A stretch of 64,000 nt of DNA from a virus (IMGVR_UViG_3300025030_001449:1-64000), one strand, 5' to 3'. Shown: positions 14,975 to 38,460, counted from the first letter of the stretch. Program-made: numbers and translations. Notes: a model not told the origin generated them from the sequence alone.

Positions 14975-15691
14975 TTGGCAAGAAAAAGAAAAGGATATTG
15001 GTATCAAAATGAAGAACAAGCCGTTATAGATTATTTGAAATCTGATGATGCAGAAGAAAAAGATAAAATATATTTAGAAAAATTAAAATACCCACTGTCA
15101 AAAATGATAGAAAGTATTTTAAGAAGATATAAGTTATATAATAAAGAATTTAATGAGGATGATTTACAAAAAGATGTATTATCATTTATTGTAACTAAAT
15201 TTGATAAGTTTGACTCTACAAAAGGATTTAAATCATATTCTTATTTTGGCACTATATGTAAAAATTATTTACGAGGCCAATTAATTAAATCAGATAAAAA
15301 TAAAGTTAGGAACGTATCTTATGAGGATATATCGACAGCTCTTGAAAATGATCCAGAATTAACATATGAGCTAGTACATGAGTTACCATTAGAAAGTACA
15401 AAATTTATTAAAAAAATAATTAAAGAAATAAAACAAGAAATAGATATAAATAAAAATCTTAAAATTAATGAAGTAAAAGTTGGATATTCAGTAATTGATA
15501 TTTTAGAAAATTGGGAGACCATATTTAATATTGATAATTATGAAAGGGGTAGTAATATTTATGCAAAAAATAAAGTATTATATGTATTAAGAGAAATGAC
15601 ACTTTTAAATTCAAAAGAAATAAGAAATGCTTTAAAAATATATAGATCAATATATGAACTATTAAAAAAAGAAATATATATTGACAAATAA
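14975..15691 (+). CDS. Late sigma factor, T4 gp55-like
   Basis: 238 residues. Residues 65-115 carry sigma region 2 (DVLSFIVTKFDKFDSTKGFKSYSYFGTICKNYLRGQL), as in gp55-type phage sigma factors that direct host RNA polymerase to late promoters. It lacks a full region 4, as gp55 does. It probably recognises the ATTTATAT boxes in front of virion genes. No ATG exists in this frame; the likely start is TTG at 14975. An ATG at 14967 opens a different frame that stops after 20 codons. The stop codon abuts the TnpB element end. Confidence 0.8.
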   Translation: MARKRKGYWYQNEEQAVIDYLKSDDAEEKDKIYLEKLKYPLSKMIESILRRYKLYNKEFNEDDLQKDVLSFIVTKFDKFDSTKGFKSYSYFGTICKNYLRGQLIKSDKNKVRNVSYEDISTALENDPELTYELVHELPLESTKFIKKIIKEIKQEIDINKNLKINEVKVGYSVIDILENWETIFNIDNYERGSNIYAKNKVLYVLREMTLLNSKEIRNALKIYRSIYELLKKEIYIDK

Positions 15692-15717
15692 ACTACCCAC
15701 CCACGCTAAAGCGATGG
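15691..15717 (-). ncRNA. Right-end hairpin / omegaRNA 3' end of element A
   Basis: On the minus strand the end reads CCATCG-CTTTAG-CGTGGG followed by TGGGTAGTT. It matches element B's end at 25 of 27 compared positions, with stem pair T-A here and C-G there. TnpB stops inside it. In characterised TnpB systems this end forms the guide-RNA scaffold, and the guide is the flanking DNA. Confidence 0.5.
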
Positions 15718-16821
15718 AATGGGTTTTAAACCTAAGAACGAATGCACTTGACAGTACAACATACTTGGTTTTTCAGGATGGTTTATAGTCATCCCCAACA
15801 ACGCTATATTTTTAGCTGCATTCACATCAGCATCAAACACAGAGTTGCAGTTATTACAAGTAAACTTTTTACCTTGTCTATTGCCTATATGCAGGCAATT
15901 ATGGCACGTTTTACTCGTATATTCAGGTGGCACAACAATCAACTTAATACCATTAAGCAAACATTTGTAGGTAAGAAAACTTCTCAATTGATTAAAGTTC
16001 CATTTTCCTATTTTGCTTCTAAACTTCTTGCCTTTTTTATTAGCAGAAAAACGAATGCCTTTAAGATTTTCAATAGCAATTCCTTTTCCTTCTTTTTTGG
16101 CAATAGAAACAATTTGCTTACTAATAGTGTGATTAATTATTGTAGCTGTAGTCCGTTCTTTTCCAGAAAGCCTTTTCAAAACACGCTTTGCGTTCTTCGT
16201 GCATTTGGATTGGAGCGAACTTCTAACTTTTTGTCTTTTTTCTCTATAATCTGTAAGTTTTTTAGAATTAAATTTTTTTCCATTGCTAAGCGTTGCAATT
16301 TCAAGAAGGCCCATATCAATACCGATAAAACTTTCAACATTTTTAATATCTTCTTCTGGAATTTCAACTGTTTGGAAAAGGTAAAACTTGCCTTTTTTAA
16401 ATACCAAATCTGCTTCGCCCTTTATGTAAGGAATATATTTTTGATTGTGGCAGACAAATGGAATTTTCAATCTGCCTCCGATAGCCCAAATAGAAACAAT
16501 GTTAGTTGGCTTGTAAGTAAGTATTCGGCTATCGTAAGAAATACCTCCAAGTGGTTTAAATTCTCTTTTAATTTTTTTGTCAAGTTTATAAGCATCAGCA
16601 ACCTTAGAAATACAACGGACAACCATTTGAGCAGAAAGATTAAAACTATTTTTTATTCTGTGATATGTTTCGTAATGCAATTTAAAATTATTGAAAATAT
16701 GCTTTCCCCAAGCAATTTCAGATATATCATCGCAAACAGAATTAGCTTCCTTCATAGTTTCAAGAAGCAAATTAGCCTGTTCATCAGTAGGCAAAAGTTT
16801 TATTTTCAATGTCAATTTCAT
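15706..16821 (-). CDS. tnpB: TnpB, RNA-guided RuvC nuclease (element A)
   Basis: 371 residues from ATG at 16821. RuvC motifs are intact: D169 in GIDMG, E251 in IENLKG and D332 in DADVNAAKN, with a CxxC...CxxC zinc ribbon just before the last Asp. TnpB is an RNA-guided DNA endonuclease that helps its transposon persist at the donor site. An upstream in-frame start at 16845 would add a hydrophobic FILIFIF stretch and is less likely. An ATTTATAT-like box lies just upstream. The long frame on the opposite strand here is its shadow. Confidence 0.85.
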   Translation of the reverse strand: MKLTLKIKLLPTDEQANLLLETMKEANSVCDDISEIAWGKHIFNNFKLHYETYHRIKNSFNLSAQMVVRCISKVADAYKLDKKIKREFKPLGGISYDSRILTYKPTNIVSIWAIGGRLKIPFVCHNQKYIPYIKGEADLVFKKGKFYLFQTVEIPEEDIKNVESFIGIDMGLLEIATLSNGKKFNSKKLTDYREKRQKVRSSLQSKCTKNAKRVLKRLSGKERTTATIINHTISKQIVSIAKKEGKGIAIENLKGIRFSANKKGKKFRSKIGKWNFNQLRSFLTYKCLLNGIKLIVVPPEYTSKTCHNCLHIGNRQGKKFTCNNCNSVFDADVNAAKNIALLGMTINHPEKPSMLYCQVHSFLGLKPIPSL

Positions 16822-16901
16822 AAATATAAATATCAAAATAAACAAAATAATTTCATATATTTAATAAATAATTTACTAATTAAAAGAGAACGGCAATTCC
16901 T

Positions 16902-16927
16902 CCCATTGGTCACGAAGTGCCAATGGG
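16902..16927 (-). other. Left-end hairpin of element A
   Basis: CCCATTGG pairs with CCAATGGG around an inner CAC-GAA-GTG with one bulged base: the type of subterminal hairpin bound by TnpA in IS200/IS605 elements. Confidence 0.65.
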
Positions 16928-17002
16928 TTTCCTTGCCTAAAGTAATATAAAAATTTTCAGTTATGGTAAGAATAAATGGGAATTAAATTAAGTTTTGGTC
17001 TC

Positions 17003-17030
17003 CTTTTTTAATAATATGACTATTTATATA
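17003..17030 (+). promoter_or_regulatory. Late-type promoter of the tail gene block
   Basis: CTTTTT at 17003 and ATTTATAT at 17022, 19 bases apart; the next start is at 17058. Confidence 0.6.
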
Positions 17031-17057
17031 ATAATCATAAATTAAAATTAAAAAACG

Positions 17058-17501
17058 ATGGGGAGACCAAAAAAATTAAAAATTAAACTTACCAGTGAAT
17101 CATTAACTGATTTATTACAAGAATCTTATTCTCAATTAGCAGAACAAAGAAATATTGCTTTAAGACAATATAATTCACAGACTAAAAACATTAAACAAAC
17201 ATCAGATATTGCATTGGTTGGGAAAACTAATGCTGAATTATTAAAAATAATTGATAGTTCAATTGAGAAAAAAATAAGTATAGCCAGATTATTAAAAGAT
17301 ATTGTTTATAGGGAAAATAATGATAATCGGGGTAATGATGGAGAACTTTCTGTGGAGGAAAGAAAATTAGTATTTGAAGCAATAAATAGGGAAGGTTCAA
17401 ATGTATTGAAAGAAAAATTGGAAAAATCAAAGGTTGAGTTAGATTATGGCAATTTATCTGATGATACAAAATCTTCAGATAGTTCAGAAGATTTAGAATA
17501 G
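17058..17501 (+). CDS. Unknown helical protein, first gene of a tail block
   Basis: 147 residues. A basic start (MGRPKKLKIKL) is followed by helical segments (LLQESYSQLAEQRNIALRQY, LLKIIDSSIEKKISIARLL) and an acidic, Ser-rich tail. The helical, oligomer-like composition would fit a tail chaperone, a scaffold or a small terminase subunit, but nothing decides between them. Its stop TAG shares its G with the GTG start of the next gene. Confidence 0.5.
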   Translation: MGRPKKLKIKLTSESLTDLLQESYSQLAEQRNIALRQYNSQTKNIKQTSDIALVGKTNAELLKIIDSSIEKKISIARLLKDIVYRENNDNRGNDGELSVEERKLVFEAINREGSNVLKEKLEKSKVELDYGNLSDDTKSSDSSEDLE

Positions 17502-18874
17502 TGGCACTAAAAGGAAAAGATAAGGTTGACATAATAAGGAATCAAATACGTGCATATAAAAGCATGCAAACAGTTCCTGAATTAAAAAAATTAAAAAGAC
17601 CAGAGAAAGGCGCAGTTTCTTTTTTATTATCACTTTTAATTGAACTTGTTGGACCAGAAGTTATAAAACAAATTATTATTTCTTTCTTAACAAAAAATCT
17701 TATAAAAGGAGAAAATTCTATTAAAAATTCATTAAAAAATTTATTAGTATCAGACAATTCTTCCAAAGGGTCCAATATTCCTAATGAAATAAAAAATGGA
17801 TTTAAAATTCCTTTAAATAAATTGGATAAATGTGGGGCAGTATTAAAAACTGACCCAAATACAAAAGAAGGAAAAGATATGATAATTCCTGGTAGCATGG
17901 ATGATCATTTACAAAAATCCATTAATAATACCTTAAATAGTTTTAGTTTTAGTAATTATAAAAGTGTTTTGGAAACACAATATAATAATAGTGATGATAC
18001 CATATCACTAAAATCACACACATCTCAAAATAATAATTCCTTTTCTTTATTTTTAGTAAATTATATTGATTCGATGAATATAATTAATTCAAAACCACTT
18101 ATTAAAACAGTTATTGATTTTATGTTTGGGAATTTAACACCCTTAAAATATTCAATAGAATGTTTAATTGAAAAATTAAAAACTGATAAAATACTTGAAA
18201 AAATAAAGGATGATGTAAGTGAAGATGATGTTGTGTTATTTGATTTTACAAATAAAGAATTAAATGATATTGAAAAAGAAGCAGAACAATTAATTAAAGG
18301 AAATAAGAAAATTGATCTGGGGTGTGGATTTATGGAAATGAATTTTGATATTGATGAAATAAATAATATTATTGATGGGTTAGAGAACATTGGGGAATCC
18401 TCAATTCAACAAGTTACAAATGTTGTTGATAATATGGAAAATCATGTTGCTTCAAATAATCTAACAACTGTTCAGCAAAAAGAAAATCAATCAACTGTTA
18501 AAAATGGGTTTGCGAGAGGATTTTTAGAAATAATTGAACTTTATTTAATAAGACAGGCTATATTGGGTCCACAAATGCAGATGTTATTTATGTTAATTGA
18601 TGTATTTAAAGGAAATTTAGATATTGTCGGGGGAGAACTACAAGATAGTTCAGAAAGTCTAACACAGGACTTAAAAAACAGGAAATCTTTGATTAAAAAC
18701 TTAACAAAACAAACTAAAAGTATTATAACCCAGGCAATTTTTGAAAAATTTACAACAGAGTGTAATAAATTGAAAAGTAGTATTATTCCAAAATATGCAA
18801 AAGATGTATTTGGAATTTATGGAAAACAAATGGCTGGGTTGATAGGAATTAGGGACCAGGGGGTAATAGGTTAA
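17501..18874 (+). CDS. Large unknown virion-block protein
   Basis: 457 residues with a GTG start overlapping the previous stop by one base. It has two hydrophobic helical regions (AVSFLLSLLIELVGPEVIKQIIISFL near 40-65, and IIELYLIRQAILGPQMQMLFMLI near 350) and an Asn-rich middle. This suits a tail or baseplate component that may contact membrane, or a tape-measure-like part, though it is short for the latter. Position between a late promoter and the gp5-like hub supports a tail role. Confidence 0.5.
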   Translation: MALKGKDKVDIIRNQIRAYKSMQTVPELKKLKRPEKGAVSFLLSLLIELVGPEVIKQIIISFLTKNLIKGENSIKNSLKNLLVSDNSSKGSNIPNEIKNGFKIPLNKLDKCGAVLKTDPNTKEGKDMIIPGSMDDHLQKSINNTLNSFSFSNYKSVLETQYNNSDDTISLKSHTSQNNNSFSLFLVNYIDSMNIINSKPLIKTVIDFMFGNLTPLKYSIECLIEKLKTDKILEKIKDDVSEDDVVLFDFTNKELNDIEKEAEQLIKGNKKIDLGCGFMEMNFDIDEINNIIDGLENIGESSIQQVTNVVDNMENHVASNNLTTVQQKENQSTVKNGFARGFLEIIELYLIRQAILGPQMQMLFMLIDVFKGNLDIVGGELQDSSESLTQDLKNRKSLIKNLTKQTKSIITQAIFEKFTTECNKLKSSIIPKYAKDVFGIYGKQMAGLIGIRDQGVIG

Positions 18875-18913
18875 AATTTTGTTTTTAAAATATTTATATA
18901 AAAAAATAATATT

Positions 18914-19300
18914 ATGGCAAAAATAGATTTTTGTAGTTTTGAATCGGTTCTTGAGGGTGTAAAAAGATGTTTGTTAATTCCACGACCAAAAGTCCCTCGA
19001 ATACCATCTTTTTTGGTATTATTGGCTAAAGCCAGACCTGGGCTTAGCAGTTCAAAAATAACAGCAGGTATTTTATCAAGACGAAGTGAGGCAGGAATAA
19101 ATCCATTAAGTCCTGAAATGGAAAAATTAATTAGAATAATTGTAGAAGAAATAGTGGAGGGAATAACTCAAGATGCTAGAATGACAATTGCAATAAATCC
19201 AGGAATTCCAGTAACTGCCGGAGGTGCAAATGCTGCCGGCCCGGTGATTTGTCAGGGCAGCACTACTGCACCCGGTTCGGGAACTGGTGTTATCCAATAA
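18914..19300 (+). CDS. Small virion-block protein with Gly/Ala-rich tail
   Basis: 128 residues. A helical N-terminal part (FESVLEGVKRCLLIPRPKVPRIPSF) leads to a C-terminal segment rich in Gly, Ala, Pro and Thr (PVTAGGANAAGPVICQGSTT). The DNA of this tail is clearly richer in G+C than its surroundings, so it may be a recent addition or under amino-acid-driven selection. An ATTTATAT box lies 20 bases upstream. Function unknown, likely structural. Confidence 0.5.
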   Translation: MAKIDFCSFESVLEGVKRCLLIPRPKVPRIPSFLVLLAKARPGLSSSKITAGILSRRSEAGINPLSPEMEKLIRIIVEEIVEGITQDARMTIAINPGIPVTAGGANAAGPVICQGSTTAPGSGTGVIQ

Positions 19301-19313
19301 AATAAAATTTAAC

Positions 19314-19493
19314 ATGATTAAACAAATTGATAAACTAACAAATAATGAACTTTTAAGAAAAATTCAGGATTTAACTGAAAAACATGAAAGATTAAAATCT
19401 GAAATAATTATTAAATGTGGAGAAGTGGATATGTGTGAAATTGAATATAATAAATTAATGGAACATCTTGGTAAGAGAATGGGCAAAAAATAA
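19314..19493 (+). CDS. Short coiled-coil protein
   Basis: 59 residues from ATG at 19314; a GTG at 19287 would start inside the previous gene. Heptad-like Leu/Ile/Glu/Lys spacing (IDKLTNNELLRKIQDLTEKHERL) predicts a coiled coil. Located immediately before the hub gene, it could be an assembly factor; no family is recognised. Confidence 0.5.
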   Translation: MIKQIDKLTNNELLRKIQDLTEKHERLKSEIIIKCGEVDMCEIEYNKLMEHLGKRMGKK

Positions 19494-19500
19494 TTAAAAA

Positions 19501-20430
19501 ATGGCAGGACTTTTTCCTAAAGTAATAAATGACAATAGAACATCAATAAATGGAACTGACAATACCATATATATTGGTAGAGTTGTTTCATTATCCAATG
19601 ATATTTTTGATGATTATAGAATTAAAGTTAGATTAAAAGGTATTGATGATAAAACATCAGACAAAGATTTGGTATTATGTGATCCCTTTCTTCCAAAACA
19701 TTTAAAGATTATTCCAAAAGTGGGGGAGTGGGTTAAAATATTATTTTGGAATACTTCTAATAAATCTCAACATAGAGAATGGTGTGGCCCAATTATATCA
19801 CAACCACAAAAATTAAAAAAAGATTCAGAATCACCATTTTCAACACAGACATTATCTATTTTATCCCCGGAAACATCAAAAGAGGTTTTGGCAGACGCAA
19901 GGGGGGTTTATCCAGAAAAAGATGATATCGCATTACAGGGAAGAGATAATACCGATATAATACAAAGAGAAAGAGAAATAGTACTGAGAAGTGGAAAACA
20001 TAAGATTGACGATAATTTGAAATTAAATAAGGATAACCCATCATTTGTTCATCAAAAAATATCAGATGATGGCAAAGTATCAAATACCAATATTATTGCA
20101 AATAAAATTAATTTAATAACACATGATGGTTCCCCCACATTCAGGGGAATGATAAAAGATAAAAATTCAGATGATATTATTGAAATGTTTTCTGGTAAAA
20201 TATCAGATAAAATTCAAAAACAAATAAATGAAAATAGTCATTCTGTTATCTATGGAGATAAAATGGTAGAATTTATTGAATTAATAAAGAAATTCTTATC
20301 AGAGCACAGTCACAGTTATGCGGGCGGGCCCACAAACGAAACTTCACCTGGCTGGGATACTTTACAAAAAATATTAAAATTTGATTTAAATGAAGGTTCA
20401 TTTAGATCAAAAAATGTTAAAATAAATTAA
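19501..20430 (+). CDS. Baseplate hub / central spike protein, gp5 OB-fold type
   Basis: 309 residues. Residues 20-110 form the gp5/VgrG-type OB fold: YIGRVVSLSNDIFDDYRIKVRL, then a long loop, then IPKVGEWVKILFWN and REWCGPIISQP. The C-terminal end has SEHSHSYAGGPTNE, a histidine-containing cap typical of phage spike/hub proteins. It is expected at the tip of the tail tube. No lysozyme domain like that of T4 gp5 is present, so cell-wall digestion must come from another protein. Confidence 0.75.
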   Translation: MAGLFPKVINDNRTSINGTDNTIYIGRVVSLSNDIFDDYRIKVRLKGIDDKTSDKDLVLCDPFLPKHLKIIPKVGEWVKILFWNTSNKSQHREWCGPIISQPQKLKKDSESPFSTQTLSILSPETSKEVLADARGVYPEKDDIALQGRDNTDIIQREREIVLRSGKHKIDDNLKLNKDNPSFVHQKISDDGKVSNTNIIANKINLITHDGSPTFRGMIKDKNSDDIIEMFSGKISDKIQKQINENSHSVIYGDKMVEFIELIKKFLSEHSHSYAGGPTNETSPGWDTLQKILKFDLNEGSFRSKNVKIN

Positions 20431-20441
20431 AAAAGATATAA

Positions 20442-20469
20442 CTTTTTATTATAAAGTGATATTTATATA
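20442..20469 (+). promoter_or_regulatory. Late-type promoter
   Basis: CTTTTT at 20442 and ATTTATAT at 20461, 19 bases apart, upstream of the tagged gene at 20486. Confidence 0.6.
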
Positions 20470-20485
20470 AAAAAAATAATTCCAA

Positions 20486-20815
20486 ATGAAAATAATAAAA
20501 GTTAAAGAATCTCAACTAAAAATGATAGTTGAAAGTATAATTAAAGAAAAAAGTGAAAACTTGAAAGAGGGAATGAATCCTGGTACAGGAATAGAAGGCT
20601 TTGTACAACAAGAAGAATTTCCTAAAAGAGAATTGAAAAGAAAAGAAACTGGTTTTAGAAAAAGAGAATTTGATCCATATCCAAAGGAAAGTCAGATCCT
20701 TTCGATATTTGGGCCATATGCTGACGATGTACCACCACAAATTTTACAATTTATGCGAAAGAATCCAAAATATGTTGCAGAAAAATTAAGAATGATCTAC
20801 GGTAAAAAATATTAA
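20486..20815 (+). CDS. Unknown protein with N-terminal ESQ-type tag
   Basis: 109 residues. It starts MKIIKVKESQLKMIVESIIK, a divergent copy of the shared N-terminal peptide, followed by a polar linker and a basic, Pro/Arg-rich body (EFPKRELKRKETGFRKREFD). It ends with a small helix (ILQFMRKNPKYVAEKLRMIYG). It has its own late-type promoter. If the peptide is a head-targeting signal, the basic remainder would suit a DNA-binding internal protein; both points are inference. Confidence 0.55.
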   Translation: MKIIKVKESQLKMIVESIIKEKSENLKEGMNPGTGIEGFVQQEEFPKRELKRKETGFRKREFDPYPKESQILSIFGPYADDVPPQILQFMRKNPKYVAEKLRMIYGKKY

Positions 20816-20890
20816 ATAATTTTTTTATTTATTAATTAATTCCTTTAATTTTATTGGTTTATTATTCCAGTCAATTTATTTTTTTCTTTC
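20816..20890. other. Convergent intergenic region
   Basis: The plus-strand block ends and the minus-strand block begins here. It is A/T-rich, and no clear terminator stem could be drawn. Confidence 0.5.
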
Positions 20891-21316
20891 TCACATCTTA
20901 CATCTTACATATTCAACAGAGCCACAAACATTTTCAAATATTATATTATCAATATTATATTCTTTTAATTTAGGATTAATAATTTCAATTAAATATCTAT
21001 CAAGTTTTTTATTAAATAATGTAATTGATTTTCTAATTTCTTTTCTTAGTCCTTCATTATTTATTTTTCCAGAAAACAATTTGATTATTTCTTCCTTTTG
21101 TAATTCCAAATATCTTGACACAAAATATCTTCTATCAAATATAATGGTTTCATTTCTAATTGTAAATGGTTCTGTTGGATTATTATCACATATTTCTGTA
21201 AACCATTTATTCTTTCTTATAAAATTATTTAATTCTTGAGAACAAAATATTCTATCATGTTCTTTTAAAACATTATATCCCATATTTTTTATTAGTTGAT
21301 TAATAATATCGCTCAT
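20891..21316 (-). CDS. Unknown helical protein
   Basis: 141 residues, starting with a 4-base overlap (ATGA type) on the previous minus-strand gene, so it is translationally coupled to it. It is mostly helical with charged surfaces (FDRRYFVSRYLELQKEEIIKLF). No motif was recognised. The coupling suggests it works with the terminase-like protein encoded upstream. Confidence 0.5.
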   Translation of the reverse strand: MSDIINQLIKNMGYNVLKEHDRIFCSQELNNFIRKNKWFTEICDNNPTEPFTIRNETIIFDRRYFVSRYLELQKEEIIKLFSGKINNEGLRKEIRKSITLFNKKLDRYLIEIINPKLKEYNIDNIIFENVCGSVEYVRCKM

Positions 21317-21930
21317 TTATTTATTACATCTACAATATTAACATAATAATTATTTTTAGATTTCGTATAAAATTTATAAAATTTATTATTAGTTTTCATT
21401 AAAATGGAATGTTCCATAATAATTTTTGGTTTTATCCCAAAGTCCCATAATTGTAATAAATCATCAAATATTTTTTCTAATTCTTTATCATCCAACCCAT
21501 CCATATCCGATAAATAAATTAAATCTGGTTTAAATCCACTAATATGTGTCGGATATTCAGATATTCTGGAACCATTTATTAATTTCAATTCGTTTGCGTT
21601 ACTTTTAATTATGTTAACATGAAGTATTCTTTCAATAAAATCTTTTATTGTACCTATTGTACTACCATACCAATAACCACCCCTATATAATACATTCAAA
21701 TTTGAGTTATTCTGTAAATATTCACAAATGAAAAGACAAATTGTTGTTGTACTTCTAACTATTCTATTCTTTAAAATAACAGAGATATGTTTATCACAAA
21801 ATGATTCAATCATTTTTTTCTGATTATCATTTAAAATAATTTTATTTTTTTGAGATTGTTTATAATTGAATCTTAGTAAGTAATAATTATTTTCTATATT
21901 GTTTATATATTTGTCTGATAATAAACTCAT
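21313..21930 (-). CDS. Terminase-like ATPase domain, apparently degenerate
   Basis: 205 residues. Its order resembles the ATPase half of phage large terminases: LNDNQKKMIESF, then LKNRIVRSTTTICLFICEYL in place of the usual K-x-R-Q-x-G-x-T-T adenine/Walker region, then KLINGSRI, and DLIYLSDMDGL where Walker B plus catalytic Glu (DEA) should be. The Walker A glycine and catalytic Glu are not recognisable, and the nuclease domain is absent. It may be an inactive paralogue or a divergent helper. The true terminase would lie outside this window. Confidence 0.4.
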   Translation of the reverse strand: MSLLSDKYINNIENNYYLLRFNYKQSQKNKIILNDNQKKMIESFCDKHISVILKNRIVRSTTTICLFICEYLQNNSNLNVLYRGGYWYGSTIGTIKDFIERILHVNIIKSNANELKLINGSRISEYPTHISGFKPDLIYLSDMDGLDDKELEKIFDDLLQLWDFGIKPKIIMEHSILMKTNNKFYKFYTKSKNNYYVNIVDVINK

Positions 21931-21941
21931 TTGATTATGAT

Positions 21942-22613
21942 TTATAAATTATAGTTTACCTTACATTTTGTTTTCTGAAAAACTAAAAAATAACAATGAA
22001 ATTTTCTGGCATGTTGTTGATTTTTATGATTTGGGCTAGACATCCTTGATTTTGCCAATAAAACAAACATGTCTTTTGGATAATATCCAATCTCTATTGC
22101 TTTCTTCATTATTAAATAATGAGAAAAATAATTAATACCACCACTTACAGTATCTTGACATTTAAATATTAAAATCCCATTATCGTTTAATATTCTATAA
22201 AATTCTTTCATTGAATCTTCATAAAATTTCCATAGTTCTGGCATAGAAAAAAAAGAAGAAAATCTTTTATGCATCAAATTACTCCCAGGTTTACTATTTT
22301 TTAAAGACGGGCCGATAGAACAAAGAAATGGCGGGTCAAAAATTAGTGAATTAATACTATCATTATTCAAAGGTAAATTTTTACAATCACATTTTATAAC
22401 ATCTTCTCTTTGGGGTTCAATATCAAATTTATATTTTGGCTCTTTTACTTTTCCGTTCTTATAAAATACTCCTTTTGAAAAACAAGGATCGCAATCAATT
22501 TCTCCAGATGGAATGTGAAGTTTAATAATATTATTAATTATATCTTGTTGACTAAAATTAATTGACTTTATAACGTCCTTACTATGAACTTTATTTAATT
22601 CTAATGTTTCCAT
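21942..22613 (-). CDS. DNA methyltransferase with DPPF motif
   Basis: 223 residues. DPPF at 93-96 is the catalytic motif of N6-adenine/N4-cytosine methylases; FYRILNDNGILIFKCQD is the following strand and HARKFHCYFLVF the C-terminal segment common in phage methylases. The glycine-rich SAM motif is not obvious and may be CDPCFSKGVF near residue 41. It would modify phage DNA against restriction. Just upstream lies TnpB element B. Confidence 0.7.
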   Translation of the reverse strand: METLELNKVHSKDVIKSINFSQQDIINNIIKLHIPSGEIDCDPCFSKGVFYKNGKVKEPKYKFDIEPQREDVIKCDCKNLPLNNDSINSLIFDPPFLCSIGPSLKNSKPGSNLMHKRFSSFFSMPELWKFYEDSMKEFYRILNDNGILIFKCQDTVSGGINYFSHYLIMKKAIEIGYYPKDMFVLLAKSRMSSPNHKNQQHARKFHCYFLVFQKTKCKVNYNL

Positions 22614-22669
22614 AATTTTATTTAAAATTTTTATAATATCTTTTTGTATTTATACATATTTATATATAA

Positions 22670-23848
22670 ATGCTAAAGGGTTTTAAATACAGAATTTTGC
22701 CAACAAAGGAACAATCCATTTTGTTAAATAAGCATATTGGATCAAGTCGTTTTGTTTTTAATTTAGCCTTAGAAACTAAGCAAATGGCATACGCTGGCAG
22801 TAAAGTAAATTTATCCTGTTTTGACCTTGTGAAACAATTACCTGATTTGAAAAAAGAATGTGAATGGTTAAAAGAAGTTAATAGCCAGTCCTTACAACAA
22901 TCAATAACTAATTTAGATATGGCATACATAGCCTTCTTCAAAGGGCAAAATGGTTTTCCTACATTCAAAAAAAAATCAAATGGTGGTAGTTTCAATATTC
23001 CACAAAATGTATTGGTTGAAAATAATAAATTAATTATTCCTAAATTCAAAAAAGGAATTAATATTGTTTTGCATCGACCAATTAAAGGAACTATCAGACA
23101 AGCTATAATAAGTAAAACGCCAACAGGTAAATATTTTGCATCTATACTTTGTAAAACATGTGAAGTAATTAAGCCAAAAGCAATAATTAAAGAAAATACA
23201 ACCATTGGTATTGATTTGGGAATAAAAACCTTTTTAGTTGCCTCTGATGGACAGGAAATTGATAATCCTAAATTTCTTCGTAAAGCAATGGCAAGATTAA
23301 AATATGTACAATCCAAATACTCTAAACACAAAGGAAAAAGAACTAAACATCGGTTGGCTATTTTACACGAGAAAGTTGTTAACCAACGTAAAGATTTTCT
23401 ACACAAAATTTCAAGCAAACTAATCAAGAACCACGATAGTTTGGCAATAGAAGATTTATCAGTTTCTAACATGGTAAAAAACCACAAACTTGCACAAGCA
23501 ATTAATGATACTGGCTGGTCAACTTTTGTTACTATGTTAGAATACAAAGCAGAATGGTATGGCAAAAACATTCTTAAAATTGGCAGATTTGAACCATCAA
23601 GCAAGACTTGCTCATGTTGCGGATATATAAACAAAGAATTAACCCTATCAGACAGGGAATGGATATGTCCTAATTGCGGTGCAGTTCTTTCAAGAGATAA
23701 AAATGGTGCCATAAATATTAAATCATTTGCCATTAAAAATTATTTGTCTGTGGAATGCAGACTTAAAAATTGTAACGAATTGCCCCGTATTAATAAGGGA
23801 GTGATGACTTACGAAGCCCAACCCATCGCCTTTGGCGTGGATGGGTAG
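22670..23848 (+). CDS. tnpB: TnpB, RNA-guided RuvC nuclease (element B)
   Basis: 392 residues. The RuvC residues are D182 in GIDLGI, E261 in IEDLSVSNM and D343 in RDKNGAINI, with a zinc ribbon at C314, C317, C333 and C336. An N-terminal helix-turn-helix region (KYRILPTKEQ) is typical of TnpB. All catalytic residues are present, so it should be active. It differs strongly in sequence from the TnpB of element A, although the element ends match. Its stop codon lies in the right-end hairpin. The long opposite-strand frame is a shadow. Confidence 0.9.
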   Translation: MLKGFKYRILPTKEQSILLNKHIGSSRFVFNLALETKQMAYAGSKVNLSCFDLVKQLPDLKKECEWLKEVNSQSLQQSITNLDMAYIAFFKGQNGFPTFKKKSNGGSFNIPQNVLVENNKLIIPKFKKGINIVLHRPIKGTIRQAIISKTPTGKYFASILCKTCEVIKPKAIIKENTTIGIDLGIKTFLVASDGQEIDNPKFLRKAMARLKYVQSKYSKHKGKRTKHRLAILHEKVVNQRKDFLHKISSKLIKNHDSLAIEDLSVSNMVKNHKLAQAINDTGWSTFVTMLEYKAEWYGKNILKIGRFEPSSKTCSCCGYINKELTLSDREWICPNCGAVLSRDKNGAINIKSFAIKNYLSVECRLKNCNELPRINKGVMTYEAQPIAFGVDG

Positions 23849-23850
23849 TT
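23823..23850 (+). ncRNA. Right-end hairpin / omegaRNA 3' end of element B
   Basis: CCATC-GCC-TTT-GGC-GTGGATGGG followed by TAGTT. The GCC/GGC stem replaces GCT/AGC of element A, a compensatory change that supports a conserved hairpin. The guide would be the sequence just to the right. Confidence 0.5.
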
Positions 23851-24448
23851 CACAATATCTTTCCATCATTGATTGCCCCATGTTTTGTGCAGGATAATCA
23901 AAATGAAATGGTTTACCTTTTAATTGAGAATAATAATTTGATATTTTCATTGGATGAAATTCCCCCAAATCTTCAGTTTTTCCATCATTATAAAATATAT
24001 GAATGTCTCCATTTGTATCTGGTCCAGAATAAATTATGGAATCTTGATTATATTTGTCCATTAATTTTTTAATTAATTTTAAAGTTATATTAGAAACAAA
24101 TAATGAAGGTTCACTTCTCCATATTATTTTATCTTCTGGACAATCATCAAGATTATTGACATTTATTTCACATTCTTTCCATTTACCAATTAATCTAATA
24201 AAACCAAGTTTATTTGATCTTAAATCGTGCTTTAATTTTTCAAAATTATCCTTATTTTTATCTGGTAATAATTCTTCTTTCCAAGATGTTAATATAGAAA
24301 ATGAAGTATGTTTACTTTCTTTATAATGTTGATAAACTCTATTTAAAGATGATTCATTTAATTTCTCTAAATTATTTTCATTTCTATATTTTATAATATC
24401 TTGATATGAATGTTTTTCTTTATTTATCAAATAAACATCTAAGCTCAT
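23851..24448 (-). pseudogene. DUF3293-like protein gene truncated by element B
   Basis: The native part encodes about 199 residues and then reads into the element, adding a foreign tail to a stop at 23723. The segment GFIRLIGKWKE, a Ser-Leu-Phe-Val stretch, and DKYNQDSIIYSGPDTNGD recall the DUF3293 family of small bacterial and phage proteins (tentative). Only the last dozen or so residues appear lost, so a mostly complete protein may still be made. It has a host-type promoter, indicating early expression. Confidence 0.55.
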
Positions 24449-37486: not shown

Positions 37487-38269
37487 TTAAACATATTCCC
37501 ATTTATACCCTCCAGCCGTTTTAAATCTCTTTCTACAACAATTACAAATAACACTAGATATTATTCCTGTTTCTTTGCCTGCTATTTCTAAACTTTTAAA
37601 TTGTTTAATAAAATTACCATTTTTATCATATTGATTAACTGATCTAGGATCAAATACGTTTTTTTCATGTTTATGATCTTCTAAATTTAATTTTTCTCCT
37701 TTATATTTAAAAATATATCCGCCGGCAGTTTTCCTTCTTTTTTTATTTCTACAAACATTACTTATTTGTCCATCACTGATATTTAATATTTTTCCAGCTT
37801 CTTTTATACTGTTCCATGTTTTAATAAAATTACCTTGTAAATCATATTGATCAACTGGTTTTAATGGATTAATATTTCGTCCCATCCTAGATTTACTTAT
37901 ATTTTTACAATGTTTTTTCGAAAATCCTACACCATATGCCCAATGATTTTTACCACTACCAAATCCAGTTCCGCCAGGAGTATTATTTGTTAATTTAAGC
38001 CCCCACGCCTTCATTTGTTCAATCCAATATGGTTCCCAAAATTCCCACTCATCTTCTGGAACAATATCTAATATTTTTAATTCTGGCTCTATGCCTTCTT
38101 TTATTAATTTATATATCCAACGTTCATTATGTGTTCTCTCTTTATTAGAATTCTTTTTTTGTGATATTAAAATATGACTTCGTAATCTTCTTTTTACTTT
38201 ATCAGTTTTGCCAACATAGCGAATTTCATTCGTTCTAGGATCTGATAAAGTGTAAATAAATATATCCAT
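37487..38269 (-). CDS. GIY-YIG homing endonuclease with NUMOD repeats
   Basis: 260 residues from ATG at 38269. FIYTLSDPRTNEIRYVGKT is the GIY-YIG core (here IYT...YVG), with R and E residues following. Two NUMOD-like DNA-binding units appear at the C terminus (VDQYDLQGNFIKTWNSIKEA and VNQYDKNGNFIKQFKSLEIA), plus a GFGSGKNH region typical of NUMOD3. It is a mobile nuclease in the virion gene block and is not needed for virion structure. A longer upstream frame adds no conserved sequence. Confidence 0.85.
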   Translation of the reverse strand: MDIFIYTLSDPRTNEIRYVGKTDKVKRRLRSHILISQKKNSNKERTHNERWIYKLIKEGIEPELKILDIVPEDEWEFWEPYWIEQMKAWGLKLTNNTPGGTGFGSGKNHWAYGVGFSKKHCKNISKSRMGRNINPLKPVDQYDLQGNFIKTWNSIKEAGKILNISDGQISNVCRNKKRRKTAGGYIFKYKGEKLNLEDHKHEKNVFDPRSVNQYDKNGNFIKQFKSLEIAGKETGIISSVICNCCRKRFKTAGGYKWEYV

Positions 38270-38320
38270 TTTATTATATTTCTTAAAATAAAATCCCTCA
38301 CATTTATTGGGTAATCTATA

Positions 38321-38460
38321 CAATAGTTAAATTGAAGAGAAATAAATGGTATTGGGATTTTAAATATCTTATTTTTAACTATTTTACATTACGATTACCT
38401 ATTATATAAATACCTGGTAAATGAGCAAAAGGCCAATTATTTTAAATTATTTTTAAAGAA
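38321..38460 (-). repeat. Dispersed noncoding element, copy 1
   Basis: About 135 bases similar to 53151-53283. It holds a 10-bp stem (AATAGTTAAA at 38322, TTTAACTATT at 38374), the core TATTGGGATTTTAAAT, and a late-type promoter (ATTTATATA from 38411, CTTTTGC box from 38431) reading leftward through the hairpin. Confidence 0.65.

What the first reader, a model, noticed from the sequence alone, without database searches (positions are those of the whole stretch)
15691..23850. Two different TnpB elements share covarying right-end hairpins
Element A (minus) and element B (plus) encode clearly different TnpB proteins, yet their ends match at 25 of 27 compared positions: CCATCG-C(T/C)TT(A/G)G-CGTGG. 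The stem pair T-A in one is C-G in the other, a compensatory change. The nuclease stop codons lie in the hairpin, as expected when the guide RNA overlaps the gene end. Both nucleases keep D-E-D catalytic sets. With no tnpA, the phage may hold two orthogonal RNA-guided nucleases.
Basis: partly seen in the sequence, partly recalled or inferred. Interest (0 to 1): 0.7.

Follow-up and report, generated by a model that had tools for sequence, protein, structure and literature searches.

The report
Shared transposon ends, interchangeable nucleases
A phage carries two unrelated RNA-guided nuclease genes (TnpB) on nearly the same transposon right end, because that end is a transposition signal reused by related elements that carry other TnpBs or quite different homing endonucleases; both copies here appear stranded, so they probably persist by cutting rival phages that lack them.

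Summary
Two intact TnpB genes (26% identical) lie at 15706-16821(-) and 22670-23848(+) and share a right-end (RE) hairpin, 25 of 27 positions. The claimed compensatory T-A/C-G pair is not real in these two copies: a 1-nt length difference makes A's 'pair' part of a tetraloop. The true covariation lies beside the hairpin, in the IS608-type guide/cleavage tetranucleotides: clade A AAAG/TTAC (window copy AAAA/TTAT), clade B GAAG/TCAC. The RNA scaffolds just upstream differ, and B's has two strongly covarying helices. Relatives have Y1 TnpA genes inside the same ends. The same ends also flank tnpB-less mini-elements, bare LE/RE hairpins, and LAGLIDADG, GIY-YIG and HNH-like nucleases. So the shared hairpin is best read as a transposition end on which nucleases are exchanged, not a TnpB-specific signal. 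In this phage neither element looks able to move: no tnpA was found, B has lost its left end, and A's left cleavage site does not match. Both TnpBs are intact, which favours TnpB-guided homing. Distinct scaffolds and predicted TAMs (TTCAT vs TTTAC) support orthogonality, untested. The window elements are ordinary; homing endonucleases in IS605 ends look like an undescribed variant.

The parts
15706..16821 (-). tnpB A (371 aa from ATG); Cas12f-like TnpB lineage; stop TAG in the RE hairpin loop
   Evidence: dN/dS about 0.11-0.12 against relatives
15724..15727 (-). RE guide tetranucleotide of A (AAAA)
   Evidence: pairs by the IS608 rule with TTAT
15696..15723 (-). RE hairpin of A (CCCATTCCATCGC-TTTA-GCGTGGGTGGG, unpaired T in the 5' arm)
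15688..15691 (-). RE cleavage tetranucleotide of A (TTAT), predicted element end; on the + strand ATAA, which contains the stop codon of gene 14975-15691
15658..15687 (-). predicted guide (spacer) of A: TTGTCAATATATATTTC...
   Evidence: inferred from RE position
16902..16931 (-). LE hairpin of A (CCCATTGG...CCAATGGG) with guide GAAA at 16928-16931
16940..16955 (-). LE flank of A: TATAT where relatives have the target TTCAT; cleavage site apparently lost (exact position uncertain by a few bases)
22670..23848 (+). tnpB B (392 aa), ISDra2-like TnpB lineage
   Evidence: dN/dS about 0.13-0.17 against relatives
23770..23814 (+). B RNA scaffold: covarying helix 1 (23770-23775 with 23809-23814) enclosing a hairpin
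23813..23816 (+). RE guide tetranucleotide of B (GAAG)
23817..23845 (+). RE hairpin of B
23850..23853 (+). RE cleavage tetranucleotide of B (TCAC), predicted element end
23854..23882 (+). predicted guide (spacer) of B: AATATCTTTCCATCATTG...
   Evidence: inferred from RE position
22614..22669 (+). remnant 5' region of B; the LE hairpin found upstream of tnpB in close relatives is missing, and a methyltransferase gene starts at 22613(-)
23854..24448 (-). gene apparently cut at its C-terminal end by element B; weak SAM-lyase-family similarity
   Evidence: no homologues found

Best explanation
Both are tnpA-less IS200/IS605-type elements whose right ends belong to one shared type of transposition end from the mobile elements of Bacteroidota and their phages: guide tetranucleotide, imperfect hairpin with an unpaired T, TAGT, cleavage tetranucleotide. 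A Y1 (HUH) transposase supplied by related elements would recognise the hairpin, and the DNA guide selects the cleavage site, so unrelated cargo can use the same end. The nuclease is a replaceable module: two TnpB lineages here; elsewhere a third TnpB, or LAGLIDADG, GIY-YIG or HNH-like enzymes. In this phage both elements are probably stranded (B lost its left end, A's left cleavage site no longer matches). The RE also forms the 3' end of the guide RNA, whose spacer is the flanking phage DNA, so each TnpB would cut empty alleles of its own site in co-infecting phages and be copied in by recombination. Shown: ends, codes, scaffold covariation, cargo exchange, loss of LE. Inferred: TnpA in trans, RNA production, cutting, homing.
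For: RE codes: A-clade TnpBs AAAG/TTAC in 16 and AAAA/TTAT in 3, none mixed; B-clade GAAG/TCAC in 42 of 43. LE codes: AAAA/TTAT 16, AAAG/TTAC 5, no swaps (Fisher 5e-5 ignoring relatedness). Same pairing as IS608 GL AAAG/CL TTAC and GR GAAT/CR TCAA (PMC5934647). The window A change G:C to A:T is absent from its nearest relatives. Y1 TnpA inside or beside the same ends in relatives: L035 E 7e-32, L023, L031, L209. Same ends without TnpB: LAGLIDADG L279, L361, L362 (two found by protein search, blind to the ends), GIY-YIG L249, L267, HNH-like L218; mini-elements and bare LE/RE fusions. B scaffold: 13 pairs changed on both sides against 5.8 in shuffles, 0 of 500; the A scaffold differs. Selection on both TnpBs. 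TnpB-driven homing is proposed for ISDra2 (PMC8612924) and a TnpB gene drive shown in plasmids (PMC11870625).
Against: No tnpA was seen inside an A-type element, so the enzyme moving A is unknown. No empty site was found for either element. No RNA or cutting data. Target TTCAT for A and TTTAC for B come from relatives, not from this phage. Counts of codes and dN/dS include related sequences and do not isolate the window's own branch.
Confidence: 0.72

Rival explanations
1. The hairpin is shared because both TnpBs bind it as the 3' part of their guide RNA.
For: RE forms the 3' end of the reRNA in ISDra2 (PMC8612924); the hairpin lies directly before the predicted spacer and has some compensatory changes.
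Against: The same hairpin occurs on LAGLIDADG, GIY-YIG and HNH-like elements and on bare LE/RE fusions without scaffold or TnpB. Distant B relatives keep GAAG...TAGTTCAC but use quite different hairpins, as do A relatives L004-L009.
Confidence: 0.2
2. Both copies are dying IS remnants without function in the phage.
For: No tnpA in the record, LE of B gone, LE cleavage site of A not matching.
Against: Both ORFs are intact with all catalytic and zinc residues; pairwise dN/dS is about 0.11-0.17. LE-less tnpB copies recur: 11 of 27 B-type copies, the window's included, lack a detectable LE.
Confidence: 0.2
3. The two ends became alike by convergence under hairpin constraints only.
For: Hairpins before TAGT are a general feature of such ends.
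Against: Sequence identity of 25/27 including the unpaired T, although many other hairpin sequences serve in relatives; other contigs also hold both end types (L182, and L249 with L361 on one contig).
Confidence: 0.1

Closest known systems
IS608 / IS200-IS605 (tnpA + tnpB, Helicobacter pylori)
   Same: Guide/cleavage tetranucleotide logic at both ends; B-type LE code AAAG/TTAC is identical to the IS608 left end (PMC5934647)
   Different: No tnpA here; RE codes GAAG/TCAC and AAAA/TTAT instead of GAAT/TCAA; LE lost (B) or mismatched (A)
ISDra2 TnpB-reRNA
   Same: TnpB B matches ISDra2 TnpB along 352 residues (E 9e-67) with aligned catalytic residues; RE-derived RNA end next to the spacer
   Different: Predicted TAM TTTAC/TTTAT instead of TTGAT; element without tnpA
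Cas12f-related TnpBs
   Same: TnpB A is closest by sequence to Cas12f and Cas12f-like TnpB chains (9nzq, 8j12, 9nzp)
   Different: Encoded in an IS605-type element; only 26% identical to B
IStrons and group I introns with homing endonucleases
   Same: Mobile element coupled to a nuclease that promotes homing
   Different: No intron found here (Rfam none); in the related elements the homing endonuclease sits in IS605 ends in place of, or beside, tnpB

Membership tests
IS200/IS605 (IS1341-like, tnpB only) | TnpB with OrfB_IS605 and TNB domains | tested here: met
IS200/IS605 (IS1341-like, tnpB only) | RE subterminal hairpin with matched guide/cleavage tetranucleotides | tested here: met
   both elements
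IS200/IS605 (IS1341-like, tnpB only) | LE hairpin with intact cleavage site (needed for mobility) | tested here: not met
   A has the LE hairpin but TATAT where relatives have TTCAT; B has no LE. Filed as an immobile derivative, not an active IS
IS200/IS605 autonomous (tnpA + tnpB) | Y1 transposase | tested here: not met
   record may be a fragment
OMEGA / TnpB RNA-guided nuclease | RuvC D/E/D and zinc-binding cysteines | tested here: met
OMEGA / TnpB RNA-guided nuclease | Structured RNA scaffold ending at RE | tested here: met
   B: covariation 0 of 500 shuffles; A: conserved scaffold, modest covariation
OMEGA / TnpB RNA-guided nuclease | RNA-guided, TAM-dependent DNA cleavage | not testable with these tools
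   needs biochemistry
TldR-type nuclease-dead TnpB repressors | Lost catalytic residues | tested here: not met
   D/E/D intact in both

The most novel reading that the evidence does not exclude
IS605-type ends in Bacteroidota and their phages are a chassis on which homing nucleases of unrelated folds are exchanged: at least three TnpB lineages, LAGLIDADG, GIY-YIG and HNH-like enzymes, some still carrying the RNA scaffold of the TnpB they replaced. If so, RNA-guided and protein homing endonucleases do the same job for the same transposon.
Probability: 0.55. Interest if true: 0.75.

Novelty: new variant of a known kind. Interest (0 to 1): 0.5.

Why it matters
It separates what the shared hairpin says (a common transposition end) from what it does not (a common guide RNA), and gives natural pairs of unrelated TnpBs on one end type for testing which parts of the RE serve transposition and which serve the guide RNA. 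The related elements with protein homing endonucleases would directly test the idea that TnpB works as a homing endonuclease for its transposon.

Tried and rejected
Compensatory T-A/C-G pair between A and B: rejected, loop lengths differ. Rfam: no hit in the window. Empty sites: no homologue of the interrupted gene was found, and joined flanks matched no foreign locus across the joint (the spanning matches are each element's own locus). Idea that A's insertion turned a TGA stop into TAA: not supported, relatives mostly end in TAA. Further IS605-type ends in the window by a generic hairpin scan: only AT-rich noise. Literature: no paper in the held library combined homing endonuclease, IS605, TnpB and GIY-YIG, or LAGLIDADG, IS200, transposon and TnpB; subscription papers are not covered.

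Full report
WHAT IS THERE. The window is part of a 91,173-bp virus record from a tailed phage with a T4-type baseplate protein. Element A (minus) encodes a 371-aa TnpB at 15706-16821, element B (plus) a 392-aa TnpB at 22670-23848. Both score above the Pfam cut-offs for the TNB and OrfB_IS605 domains, keep D/E/D and four zinc-ribbon cysteines. They share 26% identity. By sequence B is ISDra2-like (8bf8, E 9e-67), A nearest to Cas12f and Cas12f-like TnpBs. A quick tree of 46 TnpBs puts them in two separate groups.

THE RIGHT ENDS. The cores CCATCGC-TTTAGCGTGGGTGGGTAGTT (A) and CCATCGCCTTTGGCGTGGATGGGTAGTT (B) agree at 25 of 27 positions with a one-base gap. Shuffles never give the core. The stop codon is inside the hairpin in A, just after it in B.

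WHERE THE COVARIATION IS. In IS608 the cleavage sites are recognised by tetranucleotide guides 5' of each hairpin: GL AAAG/CL TTAC, GR GAAT/CR TCAA (PMC5934647). In the A clade the RE carries AAAG/TTAC (16) or AAAA/TTAT (3, among them the window copy); in the B clade GAAG/TCAC (42 of 43). B-type left ends read AAAA/TTAT (16) or AAAG/TTAC (5) at the usual spacing, without swaps. A-type left ends have target TTCAT with guide GAAA. All agree with the pairs g1:c2, g2:c1, g4:c4, a rule I derived from the published IS608 sequences. The counts include related sequences.

GUIDE-RNA SCAFFOLDS. Upstream of the hairpin the two clades differ. B's 90-column alignment of 23 members has two helices with heavy compensatory change; over the whole structure 13 pairs change on both sides (5.8 in shuffles, 0 of 500). 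B's last 40 codons have a raised non-synonymous rate (0.26-0.31 against 0.11-0.16 elsewhere), as expected if that stretch serves RNA more than protein. The A scaffold is conserved with a different helix.

MOBILITY. No Y1 transposase was found in this record. Relatives have one inside or beside the same ends: L035 (Y1_Tnp, E 7e-32), L023, L031, L209. Window B lacks the LE hairpin of its closest relatives; window A has the LE hairpin but TATAT instead of TTCAT. Both look immobile now. Cellular relatives of the end are mostly in Bacteroidota, with four hits in Galbibacter marinus.

CARGO EXCHANGE. A scan for the RE core gave at least 118 viral stretches. Besides TnpB elements it found tnpB-less mini-elements that keep a scaffold-like 3' part, and bare LE/RE fusions. 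Some elements carry protein homing endonucleases: LAGLIDADG (L279), GIY-YIG/NUMOD3 (L249, L267), an HNH-like ORF judged by eye without a Pfam hit (L218), and L209 with TnpA, TnpB and GIY-YIG. L249's GIY-YIG score is slightly below the Pfam cut-off, L267's and L209's above it. Protein searches blind to the ends gave two more LAGLIDADG elements, L361 and L362, with A-type ends on both sides and an A-type scaffold; L362's scaffold is almost identical to that of window A. L260 has a third TnpB lineage ahead of an A-type RE with an A-type C-terminal remnant. These matter for the question asked: the hairpin persists where no TnpB is present.

MECHANISM. Most likely the shared hairpin is a Y1-transposase end used by elements with different nucleases, and the RE doubles as the 3' end of the guide RNA when the nuclease is TnpB. 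With neither element apparently able to move, the intact TnpBs are best explained by homing: cutting empty alleles in co-infecting phages, as proposed for ISDra2 (PMC8612924) and as shown for a TnpB gene drive in plasmids (PMC11870625). Transcription, cutting and homing are inferred.

NOVELTY. The window elements are new members of IS200/IS605. Homing endonucleases in IS605 ends were not found in the literature held (one search lists papers that only share the words), and I rate that pattern a new variant of a known kind.

Noticed in passing
L279:4976-5554(-), L361:2501-3076, L362:2501-3076: LAGLIDADG genes between A-type IS605 left and right ends, with an A-type RNA scaffold kept before the RE.
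   Followed up: partly
L249:31-750(-), L267:1728-2417(-), L209:5039-5788(+): GIY-YIG/NUMOD3 genes inside B-type ends; L249's ORF runs in frame through the RE as tnpB does, L267's stops at the RE edge; L209 also holds TnpA and TnpB.
   Followed up: partly
L218:3835-4404(-): HNH-like ORF (no Pfam hit) between B-type LE and RE, single case.
   Followed up: partly
L151, L159, L163, L176, L200, L237, L262: tnpB-less mini-elements with LE, a short scaffold-like stretch, and RE: possible trans-acting guide RNAs.
   Followed up: no
L168, L234, L240, L245, L259, L274: Bare fused LE/RE hairpins of about 55 nt, PATE-like.
   Followed up: no
L260, near 1770-2500: Third TnpB lineage (about 31% to A) ahead of an A-type RE, with a remnant of an A-type TnpB C-terminus.
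   Followed up: partly
window 37487-38323(-): Free-standing GIY-YIG/NUMOD1 gene in the same phage, no IS605-type end seen nearby.
   Followed up: partly
window 23854-24448(-): Gene apparently cut by element B, with weak SAM-lyase-family similarity (below the Pfam cut-off), a possible counter-defence gene.
   Followed up: partly
window 15688-15691: The stop codon of gene 14975-15691 lies in the terminal tetranucleotide of element A.
   Followed up: partly
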